Shown here: piece by piece, positions 4,327-28,737 of the stretch
Layout of the letters: each line of letters opens with the position of its first letter
How positions within the stretch are numbered: the first letter of the stretch is position 1
Origin: Hysterium pulicare CBS 123377
Taxonomy: Eukaryota; Ascomycota; Dothideomycetes; Hysteriales; Hysteriaceae
DNA: 45,651 bases
NCBI GenBank assembly: GCA_000467715.1
Contig: AJFK01000179.1
Span: 1 to 45,651 of the forward strand
Direction: 5' to 3'
The notes under the pieces: generated by a model
The model's database searches: none
Seen by the model: only the letters and a program-made list of their open reading frames with translations
Told to the model about the DNA's origin: nothing
Program-made: the position numbers and the translations under genes

Positions 4327-7063
4327 ATGGCCCCCTGTTTTCTTGTTGCAATTGACTTATCAAGTTATACACAACCTACCCAAGGCTTAGACTCAAAGGC
4401 GTTGTCTTGCCTAGGAAACGTCTTCACCGCCATCCATCCCGATTCCATTGACAATGCACTCCTTTACCTCCAAGAAACTGTCGGCCGACATTCCGCATAC
4501 TTCGATGTATCAGCTCTGACATCCCTCGATGATGTCGTTTCTTTGCTCGATTCTGGCGCTGCAAAGGTGTTTGTCACCCGCCCGCAGCTAGATCAGCTTT
4601 TAGCACAGACTATCGACCAGGATCGCCTCGTCCTCATGATGCCCGGCAACACAAAGCAAGAAATCATTGATGCCATAGGAGGTACCGCAGTCGATGTTTA
4701 TTCCCACCAAGTTCAGGACATCGAACTGGTCGAGGCATGGCTTAGAGAGTACGGCACGGATAGACCCGAAGTTTTCGTTTCCTTCGCCTCTCCCAATCTC
4801 GACAATGCGCTGCGAGTGGCTAGACTATCTGCAGTTCCCATCATACCAGCCGAAGCTCTTACAGTCGATCCCAAACGCGAACCTACCTGTATAAGTGTTG
4901 CGGAGGTCCTTTTAGCCAATACCACGAGCGATCGGCCAGATGGGCTTTTCACAACACTTGTTACAGACGAGCGAGGTGTAGCTCTCGGTCTGGTATATAG
5001 TAGCGAGGAAAGTGTAGCTGAGAGCTTGCGAACAGGGCGGGGAGTTTATCAAAGTCGGAAAAGAGGACTTTGGTACAAAGGTGAAAGCAGTGGGGATGTC
5101 CAGGAACTCCTTAGAGTATCTTTGGATTGCGACAACGATTGCCTGCGATATACCGTGAGGCAGAAAGGCAGAGGTAACGGAGCTATGCTATATAATCCAC
5201 CGAGCTGCGCTGATTTTCGGCAGGATTCTGTCACTTGGCCACAGCAACTTGCTTTGGACAATACACTGGGATCTCTCGTCTCCAACAGACCCTGCAAAGC
5301 CGCAAGGACTCGGCTCCAGCGGGATCTTACACATCTCGGTTATTCAACGATCCTCAGTTGCTGAAAGCCAAAATTCTGGAAGAAGCAAATGAGCTTTGTG
5401 ATGCCAAGTCTAAATCTGAGATTGCATTTGAAGCCGCTGACCTCCTCTACTTTGCCCTTACAAAATGTATTGCCGCAGGAGTAACATTAGAAGACATTGA
5501 GCGAAACCTAGATTGCAAGAGCGTCAAGGTCAAAAGAAGAAAAGGAGACGCCAAACAGGTCTTTGCCGCCCAGGTCAGATCTACTAATGGTAGCTTTAAC
5601 GGTCCGAATACGAACGAAACTTCAAAAGCGGCGGCATCGACACTCAATAGTAAGGATGATTCAGCAGGGTTGAAGAATGGTAGGATAGCGATGAAGCGAT
5701 ACATAACTGCTGTTGAAACGCCGGACGTCGTTCAGGCGGCTCTTCAACGCCCCTCGCAACGTTCCAGTGACCAGATACTGGGCATATGTCATCCCATCAT
5801 TAATTCAGTCAAAATTCGAGGAGATGATGCTCTGTTGGAATACACCCATAAGTTTGATAAGGCAACATCCCTAACCTCACCCGTCATAAAAGCTCCATTC
5901 TCCTCATCATTAATGCAACTCGATCCCGAAACCATTCAAGCAATCGATGTTTCGTTCGAGAATATTCGTCGGTTTCATGCTGCTCAGAAGGAAGACAAGC
6001 CACTTGTGGTAGAGACGATGCCCGGCGTGGTCTGCTCCCGCTTTTCTCGTCCTATCGAACGCGTTGGGCTCTACGTTCCTGGAGGTACAGCAGTTCTACC
6101 ATCGACAGCGCTTATGCTTGGAGTTCCTGCCATGGTGGCTGGCTGTAGGAAAATAGTGCTTGCATCCCCGCCAAGACCGGATGGTTCAGTAACTCCCGAG
6201 ATAGTCTATGTCGCTCACAAAGTCGGAGCAGAAAGTATAGTTCTGGCTGGCGGTGCGCAGGCCATCGCAGCTCTTGCTTACGGAACTAAAAGCGTATCTA
6301 AGGTGGACAAAATTCTAGGTCCAGGGAATCAATTCGTCACAGCTGCCAAGATGATTGTTTCTAATGATACGAACGCTGGCGTCAGCATTGATATGCCCGC
6401 CGGCCCAAGCGAGGTATTGGTAGTCGCCGATGCCACCGCGAATCCGGCTTTCGTTGCTTCCGATCTTCTGAGTCAGGCAGAGCACGGTGTGGATTCTCAA
6501 GTTATCCTTATCGCTGTCGGTCTCAGTGAAGCACAACTTGGCGCCATTGAGAACGAGCTTGATGCTCAAGCAAACGCCCTACCCCGGGTGGATATTGTAA
6601 GAGGAGCCATCGAACACTCTGTTACTCTTGTCGTGAGTAATATCGCAGAAGCTATGAGGTTGAGCAATATGTACGCGCCGGAACATCTCATATTGCAGGT
6701 AGAGGATGCGGAAAACATCGTGGCGCTCGTAGAAAATGCTGGGAGTGTATTTGTCGGGCCGTGGACACCAGAGAGTGTAGGAGATTATTCTGCTGGCGTC
6801 AATCATTCTCTCCGTAAGTGAACACTCATCTTTACTAATGAATCTTAGTAATACCAAGGGCTAATGAAGCGTTCGTAGCGACATTTGGCTACGCAAAGCA
6901 GTATTCAGGTGTTAATCTTGGGTCCTACGTGAAGCACATCACCAGTTCCAACCTCACGAAAGAAGGCCTACGCAACGTTGGCGGTGCAGTCATGCAACTA
7001 GCTAAGGTTGAGGAGCTCGAAGCCCATCGGCGGGCTGTTAGTCTGAGACTCGGAGTCCCTTAG
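4327..7063 (+). CDS. HIS4: Trifunctional histidine biosynthesis protein HIS4
   Basis: One polypeptide carries phosphoribosyl-ATP pyrophosphohydrolase, phosphoribosyl-AMP cyclohydrolase and histidinol dehydrogenase (steps 2, 3, 9 and 10 of histidine synthesis); cytosolic. Exons: 4327-5173, 5224-6813, 6879-7063; introns 50 and 65 bp; product 873 aa, usual fungal length. The cyclohydrolase motif LDCDND is at 266-271 and its zinc-site GFCH is completed across intron 1 (residue 283), followed by TATCFGQYTG. The pyrophosphohydrolase domain is about 300-400 (RLFNDP, EEANELCDA, AADLLYF). Histidinol dehydrogenase runs from about 440 to the end, with RVGLYVPGGTAVLPS (from 562), AGPSEVLVVAD, SQAEHGVDSQ and YAPEHLILQ. 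The last exon supplies TFGYAKQYSGVNLGSY. The start ATG has a good context (AGAATGG). The apparent frameshift near 5180-5230 is just intron 1. All signature residues that I can check are present. Confidence 0.97.
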
Positions 7064-20556: not shown

Positions 20557-23052
20557 ATGAGGAGTCGATATGCATTCAATCGGTCACGTTTATCGCAAGC
20601 GACCACGTTTACATTACAACCATATAAATATCACCCACTACTGTCCTCCAAGTGGATACGCCTTCTCGAAATAGCTCCTTCTATAGATGGCAAGGCCGTC
20701 AGCTGTTCGTTGCGGACATTTGAGTTGCACAATTGCCCTTCCTTCTCTGCTGTCTCCTATACTTGGGGACATTCATTCATGTCCTTCTCCAAAGCACCTT
20801 CCCTAGGCTCGAAAAAAGACAATTCCAAAAAGTTGAGCCAGAATTGGGATTCAGAAGAGTCTGGACGTGTACGACGATACCCCATTACTCTTGACGGCTG
20901 CTCGATAAAAGTCACCGCGAACCTGAGAGATGCCCTTCGAATGCTTGTCAAATCAGCCTTCTCGCGAAAAAACAACACAACTCTCAATTACTTCTGGATA
21001 GATGCGTTATGTGTTAACCAATCCGACGTCTCGGAGAGGAACGTGGCTGTCGCCAGTATGGCAGAAATCTTCAGAACTGCACAGAATGTCATCGTGTGGC
21101 TTGGTAAAGAGGACGAATTCACCGCAGACGCTCTTCAAACCATCGACAAGATATCGCAGATTCCCGAAGAAAAATGGAATTTGGTCAGCTACACCAGCTT
21201 CTACCAAGACGGCGGATTTGATAAGCGCAGTGTGGTCCCGGATCTGTCGTACCACAACTGGCTAGGGCTCATTGCATTAATAAATCGTCCTTGGTTCAAA
21301 CGGGCTTGGGTAGTTCAAGAGCTGGCAATGGCGAGGTCTGCTCTAGTTGTCTGCGGGTCTAGAACCTTTCAATGGGAGAAGCTATCCAAAACTTTGGCCT
21401 TTATCAAGAGCACGAGGTGGTACCACCATCTGACCATCGACAAATTGAAACACATCAGCTCTCTCCGGCGAAACCCCGGCATTTACAAGCGTTTACTAAA
21501 TACAAATATGAACATCGGTATGGGTGCAATATACCTCGATCGAACGAGAGCCGACATGGATGTTTCTGGTCGGTTAAGCCTACACAAACAACACCGAAGA
21601 CGAAAACCTCCTTTGGGTGTACTTCTGAGCACACACCGATTTTCAAAGGCCACAGATCCGCGTGATAAGGTGTACGCTTTCTTAGGTTTGGCAGACCGAA
21701 GATTAGCACCATTCAGAGATCTGCCAAAGATTTTGACTCCTAATTATAATTTGACGGTTCAAGAAGTGTATCTCGAGACTGCGCGAGCGATGCTATTTTC
21801 ATACGGACATCTAGGGCTGCTATCCCACGTCCAAGATCCATCTTGGACTCGAATTCCTAATCTCCCTTCCTGGGTACCAGATTATACTGTAGCTTTAGAT
21901 CCCTACCCTCTAGCGTTCCGCGGCACCTTTCGATGGAAGGCAAGTGGCGATGTTAAATGGGATATGAGTGAACATGGAGTGCCGAGAGATCAGCTCTTTG
22001 TTCAAGGCTACCAACTAGACGACATAGATCAGGTCTCGGTATTACGCGACGAGTCAAAGGATGCCGCGGTTACATGGGCTAGTATCGTCAAGCTTGCGCT
22101 TGCCTTGGATGATAACTACCAGAGTACTCGCTCTGAAAGACATTCAACCCAATCTCGTGTCGAGGTCTTATGGAGAACACTCACCAGTATGTAAGGTCCG
22201 GGTACAAAGTCCATGTCGTCGCCTTTGTACTTTTCTCTTATGTTCAAGTATTAAACGGGTTGTGGCAGAACCAAAACCCCCTTTTTGAAGTTCATGCTAA
22301 TTGTACTCCCACCTTTAGCAAACACATACGCGCGACAACACCCTGCACCCGGGCATGCAGGCGATCTCTTTATCGACTATATTCTAAATCTCCAGATACG
22401 CCATCGGCTGACGCCGTGGTCAAGCGACGAAGACTTTCAGCCACATCATTCCCCTCTTTCCGAGACTACACATCCAGATTGGCATGCTCTGCTTGCTGCT
22501 GAGCCTCCAGGCTCGCCATACGGCCTGGATGCGTACAAGAAACGACTGGGCGCACTTGTTGAGCGTATGTTCAATGGAACTTACTCCCCAATAGGGCTCG
22601 CACAACTTCAACATGAATTTGAACAATCTGGGGGAAGGATGCGACGCATGTTCAAGACTCAGAATAAATATCTGGGCACAGGCCCAAGATCGTTGAAGCC
22701 AGGCGATGAAGTTTGGGTCCTTGCCGGAGCTGCCGTTCCTTGTACGTAAGGTCCGGGTACAAAGCCTTTGTCCCTTCTTTGTACTTTTCCCTTGGATTTT
22801 CACTACCCACATCCCTCTCAGGTGATATCTGAAGATTAGAACACTATAATCAGAAGCATCAAGCGGGTTCTGGTAGTACTAAAACTCTTTTTTTTGAAGA
22901 CCATGCTAATTGTACTCCTACCTTTAGTTGTGTTGCGTCGAATGTCCAACGGAAACCATCGTATCATAGGAGAGGCTTACGTTTATGGTGTTATGCATGG
23001 GGAGGTACCAGCCGATATGGCACTCCCACTACGGGCCATTGTGTTGGAATAA
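20557..23052 (+). CDS. HET-domain protein (heterokaryon incompatibility family)
   Basis: HET proteins trigger cell death or growth arrest after fusion of genetically different hyphae. This one's partner is unknown. Exons: 20557-22186, 22319-22741, 22928-23052; introns 132 and 186 bp; product 725 aa. HET motifs in order: FSAVSYTWG (63-71), YFWIDALCVNQ (145-155), RNVAVASMAEIFRTAQNVIVWLG (161-183), then LINRPWFKRAWVVQELAMA. Further motifs are DPRDKVYAFLGLA, LPSWVPDY and, after the splices, LWRTLTTNTYARQHPAPG and FVLRRMSNGNHRIIGEAYVYGVMHGE, the usual C-terminal signature of 'HET-6'-like proteins. The insert at about 305-350 is basic. Both introns interrupt family-conserved stretches that become contiguous only if the 5' sites are GTATGT (22187) and GTACGT (22742). 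The two introns are homologous to each other; see their own entries. Intact and probably functional. Confidence 0.93.
22187..22318 (+). other. HET intron 1, introner-like element copy A
   Basis: 132-bp GT..AG intron. Its first 23 bases match those of intron 2 at 22 positions, and its last 26 bases (from CATGCTAATTG to ACCTTTAG) match at 25. It carries the perfect inverted repeat GTACAAAG (22202-22209) / CTTTGTAC (22223-22230), which would form an 8-bp hairpin near the 5' splice site. The neighbouring block ACGGGTTGTGGCAGAACC also aligns with intron 2. Such end identity is far above that expected of unrelated introns. Confidence 0.85.
22742..22927 (+). other. HET intron 2, introner-like element copy B
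   Basis: 186-bp GT..AG intron homologous to intron 1, with the same hairpin arms GTACAAAG (22757-22764) and CTTTGTAC (22777-22784) and the same 3' block. It is 54 bp longer because of extra central sequence at about 22792-22860, which itself contains a possible alternative 3' splice site (CCCTCTCAG, ending about 22820). Confidence 0.85.
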
Positions 23053-28410: not shown

Positions 28411-28737
28411 ATGATGGTGTTTAGCAGAACGGGCTGTCGGTCGGATGATAATTTGGATAGCGAAGAGGGCAAGATAGATGACATGGCCCACGAGATAGGT
28501 TATATGGTTCACAATATAGAGGACAAGGTCTACAAGATGGATGATATGACCCACAAGATAGGTAACGTGACCTACAAGATGGATGACATGACCTATGAGA
28601 TGGATGATATGGCCCGCGACGTGGACGACATCGACGTAATGGGGCGATATGATTGTACCAGTCCTCTTTCTCAGCAATTATGTATGCACGCTTATGTATG
28701 TACATATAAACATCCAAGATATCACATATTCCCGTAA
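28411..28737 (+). CDS. Possible small coiled-coil ORF built on heptad repeats
   Basis: 108-codon frame from ATG at 28411 to TAA. The middle is eight successive 7-residue units such as KIDDMAH, EIGYMVH, KMDDMTH, KMDDMTY and EMDDMAR, with hydrophobic residues at fixed a/d positions: an acidic, Met-rich coiled coil. The flanks (MMVFSRTGC, and a Cys/His/Tyr-rich tail) look random. Because the repeat period is 21 bp, several frames on both strands stay open, so the ORF length is weak evidence. It could be a real small gene, an alternative 3' exon of the 27308 gene (which ends in a coiled coil just upstream), or a non-coding minisatellite. Confidence 0.3.
   Translation: MMVFSRTGCRSDDNLDSEEGKIDDMAHEIGYMVHNIEDKVYKMDDMTHKIGNVTYKMDDMTYEMDDMARDVDDIDVMGRYDCTSPLSQQLCMHAYVCTYKHPRYHIFP
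28471..28638 (+). repeat. Degenerate 21-bp tandem repeat (8 units)
   Basis: Eight consecutive 21-bp units of the type AAGATGGATGAYATGACCYA, diverged but still aligned in phase. Each encodes one heptad in the plus frame. Confidence 0.75.

What the first reader, a model, noticed from the sequence alone, without database searches (positions are those of the whole stretch)
22187..22927. Two homologous introns in one HET gene: candidate introner-like elements
The two HET introns share 22 of the first 23 bases and 25 of the last 26, plus an internal block (ACGGGTT-like and AAC/T-rich, ending TTTTTGAAG). Both carry the perfect inverted repeat GTACAAAG/CTTTGTAC just after the 5' splice site. Ordinary introns in this window share only the splice consensus. 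Multi-copy near-identical introns with stable predicted hairpins are known from some Pezizomycotina (introner-like elements). Here both copies, 132 and 186 bp, sit in the same fast-evolving self-recognition gene, and copy B has about 54 bp more central sequence. This suggests recent intron gain by copying, or intron-to-intron conversion.
Basis: partly seen in the sequence, partly recalled or inferred. Interest (0 to 1): 0.82.

Follow-up and report, generated by a model that had tools for sequence, protein, structure and literature searches.

The report
Fungal introns that copy themselves
Two look-alike introns in one fungal gene belong to a family of about sixty copied introns scattered through the genome, and the places where the copies landed hint at how new introns are made.

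Summary
Introns A (22187-22318) and B (22742-22927) of the HET gene belong to a dispersed intron family in this 37.2 Mb fungal assembly: 62 distinct copies found (a lower bound), consensus 185 nt, both splice sites inside the repeat. A and B are independent insertions, each closer to copies on other contigs than to each other; A has lost 54 nt internally. They are fungal introner-like elements, not products of local conversion. HET paralogues read straight through the insertion sites, and protein-family profiles resume exactly across 5 of 13 other insertions tried: insertion looks seamless. No target-site duplication was detected, no longer element with the same ends was found, and host frames, where clear, run along the element's strand. 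The consensus is a long imperfect palindrome with a near-terminal stem. New here: insertion sites are not random. Copies tend to sit just 5' of a short palindromic motif, W^TSAW (S = C/G), on the coding strand, with excess phase 1; A and B themselves fit it poorly. Papers on Xylariales families report no such bias. Best reading: RNA-mediated insertion into the coding strand; a DNA-transposon route is not excluded. Splicing and sister-species absence could not be tested.

The parts
20557..22186 (+). HET gene, exon 1 (ATG 20557 chosen by eye; HET domain inside)
   Evidence: open frame; PF06985 E 3.9e-26
22187..22318 (+). Intron A, introner-like copy, 132 nt, phase 1, consensus positions about 60-113 deleted
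22193..22207 (+). Intron A, 5' arm of the near-terminal inverted repeat (AAGGTCCGGGTACAA)
   Evidence: letters; pairing of consensus 7-21 with 168-182
22202..22230 (+).
22296..22301 (+). Intron A, branch-site-like GCTAAT, 14 nt before TAG
   Evidence: by eye (motif recalled, not tested)
22301..22315 (+). Intron A, 3' arm of the near-terminal inverted repeat (TTGTACTCCCACCTT)
22319..22741 (+). HET gene, exon 2
22742..22927 (+). Intron B, introner-like copy, 186 nt, full length, phase 1
22748..22762 (+). Intron B, 5' arm of the near-terminal inverted repeat
22757..22784 (+). Intron B, GTACAAAG/CTTTGTAC local inverted repeat
22905..22910 (+). Intron B, branch-site-like GCTAAT, 14 nt before TAG
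   Evidence: by eye (motif recalled, not tested)
22910..22924 (+). Intron B, 3' arm of the near-terminal inverted repeat
22928..23052 (+). HET gene, exon 3 (FVLRR...GEAYVYGVMHGE resumes across the junction)

Best explanation
A and B are two copies of one fungal introner-like element family. The unit is the whole intron, from donor GT to acceptor AG, about 185 nt, carrying its own splice sites and a branch-site-like motif, so a new copy can be spliced wherever it lands (sequence shown; splicing inferred). The ancestral-like consensus folds back on itself end to end (computed). Copies lie in many different genes, in the sense direction wherever the coding context is clear, and without detectable target duplication; where it could be checked, insertion is seamless (shown). 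They tend to land on the coding strand just 5' of a short palindromic site, W^TSAW (shown statistically for 61 copies; A and B fit it poorly). Inferred mechanism: the excised intron RNA, its ends held together by the stem, is joined through its 3' G to the coding strand at such a site, by spliceosomal reverse splicing into DNA opened by transcription or by ligation of debranched intron RNA into a staggered break, and is then copied into DNA. That would give exact, sense-strand insertion without duplication. A lost 54 nt later.
For: Copy number: (62 distinct copies; backward patterns 0). Borders: 61 of 62 copies run from GT to AG, after 13 3' ends and 3 5' ends cut short by the aligner were moved to the nearest fitting site. 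Paralogues: 57 of 57 matches other than the window's own span the split residue of site B in an open frame; the nearest (C300, 725-aa frame) has exactly one residue between the exon-2 and exon-3 pieces, and a weak match of equal length across site A (E 0.053). Pfam positions resume exactly at 5 of 13 other insertions scanned from both sides: ABC2_membrane, Lysine_decarbox, P450, AA_permease, DIOX_N. No TSD: largest excess over between-copy matches at 25 offsets is 15 against 12.2. Strand: both flanks open for 40 or more codons in 42 of 62 copies on the element strand, 8 of 62 on the other. No long parent at up to 3 mismatches: 41 of 41 3'-end and 40 of 40 5'-end places belong to the 62 copies. 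Site: TSA follows 18 of 61 copies, 3.1 expected at phase-matched positions (1000 draws, maximum 9); +1 T in 36, +3 A in 33 of 61; mirror position 3 of 61; ordinary introns 0 of 31; palindromy about +2 0.184, null maximum 0.054 in 300 draws. Fold: consensus z -3.3, copies mean -1.5, ordinary introns +0.1.
Against: No RNA evidence for splicing or for an RNA intermediate was available. A palindromic target with a 3-nt centre is what a dimeric transposase or nuclease would prefer, and a near-terminal inverted repeat is transposon-like. Covariation does not support the stem: RNAalifold predicted no pairs; 39 both-side changes against 27.9 shuffled (9 of 500 as high), but structures slid by 1-3 columns give 20-50, two of the six about 10 more than the structure itself, and pairs with both-side change (21 against 19.2, 163 of 500) are not in excess. 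Fold energy does not fall off with divergence (rho -0.20, P 0.12). Absence of intergenic or antisense copies is not proven: 9 of 62 do not score higher on the sense strand and 10 are weak or ambiguous. The site is a preference only (18 of 61 with full TSA), shows no trend with copy age (TSA 4 of 20, 7 of 21, 7 of 20 from young to old), a second, weaker palindromy (0.079) lies at the junction itself, and A (A^CAA) and B (T^TTG) fit poorly. Exonic repeats of 2 or more nt occur in 8 of 61 against 4.6 shuffled (P 0.08), one of 5 nt (C68).
Confidence: 0.65

Rival explanations
1. DNA-transposon introner: a non-autonomous MITE-like element moved by a transposase that prefers W^TSAW and leaves no, or a lost, short duplication.
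For: Inverted repeats near both ends and a palindromic, odd-centred target site. Introners with TIRs but no TSDs are reported in Acanthoeca (PMC9860276, passages seen).
Against: No TSD detected; repeats begin 6 nt inside the 5' end and 3 nt inside the 3' end; insertion is polar relative to the site (18 against 3 of 61); no long element with the same ends at up to 3 mismatches; clear contexts are coding and sense.
Confidence: 0.22
2. Local intron-to-intron conversion or duplication within the HET gene made A and B alike.
For: Both in one gene, 79% identical over 131 aligned bases.
Against: Each has closer relatives on other contigs (92% and 89%) and the tree separates them; the nearest paralogue is uninterrupted at both positions.
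Confidence: 0.03
3. [D1,2] sister stwintrons (two nested introns), as in Xylariales, rather than single canonical introns.
For: Length 184-186 nt, 14 nt between branch-site-like motif and acceptor (by eye), near-terminal complementary repeats and internal symmetry resemble those described in PMC12403724 (sections 14 and 16).
Against: The G needed before the internal GT is present in only 9 of 61 copies; removing GT..AG as one unit keeps frame and protein profile exactly at 5 of 13 insertions and in the C300 comparison.
Confidence: 0.04
4. Old shared introns kept alike by selection on a functional intronic RNA rather than copied.
For: Pairing slightly better kept than with random placement of the same changes (86% against 83%, P 0.02).
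Against: Positions are in different genes; paralogues lack the introns; star-like tree, 89% of length in terminal branches; no Rfam match in the window.
Confidence: 0.03

Closest known systems
Fungal introner-like elements of Capnodiales (Fulvia fulva, Dothistroma; van der Burgt 2012, Collemare 2015)
   Same: Multicopy whole introns, predicted stable folds, co-linear with genes, not canonical transposons (PMC3443670, passages); four genes with two copies each are on record (PMC4457414, abstract and section 9 part 1).
   Different: Sequences could not be compared (not in the text seen). [quoted passage not shown] here the site is W^TSAW. van der Burgt 2012 itself was not seen.
[quoted passage not shown]
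   Same: Symmetry, near-terminal complementary repeats, seamless insertion, no TSD, coding strand only, occasional two copies per gene; 184-185 nt and 14-nt branch-to-acceptor spacing in Xylaria.
   Different: Here single canonical introns of full length without the leading G, a different repeat sequence, and a clear bias in the bordering exon, which those papers say is absent in theirs.
DNA-transposon introners (algae, dinoflagellates; Huff 2016 recalled, Gozashti 2022 PMC9860276 passages)
   Same: Dispersed similar introns; inverted repeats in many families.
   Different: Here no TSD detected, both splice sites carried by the element, repeats not at the very ends.
Alternaria alternata introners, 'direct insertion' (PMC9860276, Fig. 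2A legend seen)
   Same: Ascomycete family said to insert directly, without DNA-transposition marks.
   Different: No target-site signature or end pairing is mentioned in the passages seen; sequence not compared.

Membership tests
Fungal introner-like elements | Many similar introns at unrelated positions in one genome | tested here: met
   62 distinct copies
Fungal introner-like elements | Repeat unit equals the intron with its own GT and AG | tested here: met
   61 of 62 copies, 16 ends adjusted to the nearest fitting site
Fungal introner-like elements | Newly gained: empty site in relatives | tested here: met
   Paralogues only: 57 of 57 at site B, C300 at both sites; a search of this kind favours uninterrupted paralogues
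Fungal introner-like elements | Absence from orthologues in sister species | not testable with these tools
   The tool states that this genome has no relatives here
Fungal introner-like elements | Predicted stable secondary structure | tested here: met
   Consensus z -3.3; 22 of 61 copies below z -2; ordinary introns mean +0.1; no covariation support
Fungal introner-like elements | Spliced in vivo at the predicted borders | not testable with these tools
   No RNA-seq; indirect support from frame and profile continuity
DNA-transposon introners | Target-site duplication | tested here: not met
   exonic repeats of 2 or more in 8 of 61 against 4.6 shuffled (P 0.08); no offset clearly above expectation
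DNA-transposon introners | Terminal inverted repeats | tested here: inconclusive
   15-nt imperfect repeat, 6 and 3 nt inside the ends
DNA-transposon introners | One splice site co-opted from the target | tested here: not met
   Both sites lie in the repeat
[D1,2] sister stwintrons | G directly before the internal donor in every copy | tested here: not met
   9 of 61
[D1,2] sister stwintrons | Near-terminal complementary repeats and internal symmetry | tested here: met
   86.5% of cells paired in the outer helix
Helitron-like elements | Insertion between A and T (recalled) | tested here: not met
   -1 A in 21 and +1 T in 36 of 61

The most novel reading that the evidence does not exclude
These introns home to a palindromic site by an RNA route: an enzyme or the spliceosome opens DNA at W^TSAW with a 3-nt stagger, and the excised intron RNA is joined to the coding strand on the 5' side of TSA, much as in group II intron retrohoming (recalled), so that the usual 3-bp duplication never forms. 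Site choice, rather than selection, would then account for part of the phase-1 excess of new introns.
Probability: 0.25. Interest if true: 0.85.

Novelty: new variant of a known kind. Interest (0 to 1): 0.6.

Why it matters
How new spliceosomal introns arise is an open question, and ascomycete introners are the outliers said to lack the DNA-transposon marks found elsewhere (PMC9860276, passages). A family with a measurable, polar insertion-site signature but no target duplication gives RNA-route and DNA-route models something concrete to explain, and it links site choice to intron phase.

Tried and rejected
Tried and set aside. Local conversion of A and B: contradicted by nearest-neighbour identities and tree. 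Target-site duplication in exons or across splice sites: not detected. Stwintron reading: missing leading G. Helitron reading: site not strict. Autonomous parent with the same ends: none at up to 3 mismatches; a diverged parent is not excluded. Conserved local hairpin: not kept by all copies. RNAalifold on 61 copies gave no pairs and pair counts no clear covariation. Motif as a leftover of the element end: unlikely, since C and G are equally common at +2 (TCA 9, TGA 9). Phase bias wholly explained by the site: not settled; TSA in host exons is phase 1 in 180 of 309, but a six-position weight model predicts only 41% phase 1 against 42 of 61 observed. Phase calls are uncertain: two methods disagree for 9 of 61. 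The palindromy null contains no motif, so it tests motif strength and symmetry together. The 31 ordinary introns are my own predictions under length and motif limits, not validated. Clustering of copies in genes: 2 multi-copy genes (this one, and three copies within 1 kb on C168, one gene by eye) against 0.2-0.3 expected, P 0.02-0.04, if 9,000-12,000 genes are assumed (gene number assumed). Rfam and tRNA scans of the window: nothing. A covariance model was built but could not be used on this genome. The consensus printed mixed strands and was discarded. The organism was not identified.

Full report
WHAT WAS CHECKED. The window is contig C144 of a 37.2 Mb, 596-contig assembly of an unnamed fungus (fungal by gene content; not identified further). 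Both are phase 1; taking them out gives a single HET gene, 20557-23052, with a HET domain in exon 1.

THE FAMILY. A search with B gave 41 places, 32 of them end to end; one with A gave 70 matched pieces. Pattern searches with the ends gave 41 and 40 places with 0 in the backward controls. A profile search over the fetched stretches gave 65 rows; merging two split copies and dropping two minus-strand self-symmetry rows leaves 61 copies, and one partial hit (C239; borders set by hand) makes 62. Three searches with divergent copies added only that one. The count is still a lower bound: the tool scores a limited number of candidates, and two diverged copies (C168 at 4589, C68 at 54864) came to light only because they lie next to others. 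Sixty-one copies entered the analyses; C535 was dropped because its 5' end is not recognisable. Lengths run from 132 to 192 nt, 44 of 61 being 180-189, against a median of 56 nt in 31 ordinary introns that I predicted in the same stretches. Copies differ from the consensus by 5-30%, median 11%; pairwise identity averages 76%, and the tree is star-like (89% of its length in terminal branches; 9 of 58 nodes with support 0.9 or more).

A AND B. A is closest to the copy on C80 (92%) and B to one on C94 (89%); they are 79% alike and rank 36th and 28th of 60 in each other's lists. They are therefore two separate insertions. A lacks consensus positions of about 60-113; another copy (C76) lacks about 75-118, so shortening happened more than once.

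INSERTION LOOKS SEAMLESS. With exons 2 and 3 of the window gene joined as a protein query, 59 matches were listed; two are the window's own halves and 57 of the other 57 span the split residue in an open frame. Such a search favours uninterrupted paralogues, since an interrupted one would match in two short pieces, and the weakest matches have E near 0.004. In the nearest paralogue (C300, one 725-aa frame) the pieces of exon 2 and exon 3 align with exactly one residue between them, the codon split by intron B; across site A there is only a weak match of equal length (E 0.053). For 13 other insertions, upstream and downstream pieces were scanned apart. Counting the split codon, and extending the ends of the matches by one or two residues, profile positions resume exactly for 5: ABC2_membrane (C154), Lysine_decarbox (C73), P450 (C447), AA_permease (C424), DIOX_N (C420). 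One is off by one (Amidohydro_1, C126), three are unclear or have loop insertions (SDR on C424, HpcH on C447, GH43 on C76), and four match on one side only (C27, C94, C263, C68). Ten further single pieces gave three matches.

STRAND AND CONTEXT. In 42 of 62 copies both flanks stay open for at least 40 codons in one joined frame on the element's strand, against 8 of 62 on the other strand. A codon-based score is higher on the sense strand for 53 of 62, and 10 copies are weak or ambiguous, so I cannot claim that none lies outside genes or in antisense. Retention would stop or shift the frame in 60 of 62.

NO DUPLICATION DETECTED, BUT A SITE. Bases at equal offsets from the two junctions match about as often within copies as between copies at 25 offsets; exonic repeats of two or more bases are in 8 of 61 against 4.6 shuffled (P 0.08), with one 5-nt case. 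Yet the bordering exon is not random: W at -1 in 44, T at +1 in 36, C/G at +2 in 44 and A at +3 in 33 of 61. TSA follows the insertion in 18 of 61, where phase-matched positions in the same exons give 3.1 on average and never more than 9 in 1000 draws. TCA and TGA are equally common (9 and 9) and the mirror position just before the intron has TSA in only 3. The composition is most palindromic about +2 (0.184), with a lesser value at the junction itself (0.079); the null maximum was 0.054. The signal holds in the 36 copies with strict ends (T 22, C/G 25, A 21, TSA 11). Ordinary introns show TSA in 0 of 31 and phases 9:8:14 for 0:1:2. The element copies have phases 7:42:12 by open frame and 7:40:14 by codon model, 4:37:11 in the 52 that agree. 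Part of this excess follows from where the motif falls in codons, but a weight model explains less. Neither copy in the window is a good example of the site.

STRUCTURE. The consensus aligns with its own reverse complement better than 299 of 300 dinucleotide shuffles and folds end to end (z -3.3), with 13 pairs joining positions 7-21 to 168-182, close to both splice sites; copies average z -1.5 and ordinary introns +0.1. Near-terminal pairing declines with divergence (rho -0.39, P 0.002), fold energy does not (rho -0.20, P 0.12); pairing is slightly better kept than if the same changes were placed at random (86% against 83%), a control that ignores unequal constraint along the element. Covariation gives no support: slid structures show as many both-side changes and RNAalifold predicts no pairs. 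I read this as a structure that mattered when copies were made and then decayed; that is inference.

MECHANISM. Shown: whole-intron units, seamless sense insertion where it could be checked, no detectable duplication, a polar palindromic site preference, no longer relative with the same ends at up to 3 mismatches. Inferred: an RNA intermediate. Reverse splicing into the coding strand, or ligation of intron RNA into a double-strand break as proposed for Hypoxylon (PMC12403724 discussion), would yield the pattern if the coding strand is cut at W^T. A transposase that prefers the same site remains possible because the site is symmetrical.

LITERATURE. Seen: PMC8469720 (outline, results parts 1 and 2 of 3, discussion part 1 of 2), PMC12403724 (outline, sections 14 and 16, passages), PMC4457414 (outline, section 9 part 1 of 2, passages), PMC9860276, PMC3443670 and PMC11889510 (passages only). 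Van der Burgt 2012, Torriani 2011 and Huff 2016 were not seen. PMC12403724 states that its 288 stwintrons show no nucleotide bias in bordering exons; [quoted passage not shown] I found no report of a W^TSAW site in the searches, which cover open-licence papers only.

VERDICT. It is a new family of a known kind, with a site signature that makes the disputed mechanism of fungal intron copying testable.

Noticed in passing
L084 (G000:C168:1600-8600), copies at contig 4588-4736, 5107-5280, 5369-5554: Three copies of the same introner family lie within 1 kb on one strand, apparently in one sugar-epimerase-like gene (by eye; the one piece scanned with Pfam gave no match).
   Followed up: partly
L067, contig C68 53845-54030 (+) and 54864-55049 (-): Two copies about 1 kb apart on opposite strands, apparently each in sense to its own neighbouring gene.
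   Followed up: partly
L010 (C73), L017 (C27): In these copies the first bases of the element are changed or partly lost and a nearby GT is the likely donor; the tandem GTAC-GTAAGG start may give a spare donor.
   Followed up: partly
window 28470-28637: Tandem repeats of 21 bp (six overlapping 63-nt copies) that by eye read as a seven-residue protein repeat.
   Followed up: no
genome-wide: 57 further HET-type matches in this assembly (E up to 0.01), a large self-recognition gene family.
   Followed up: no
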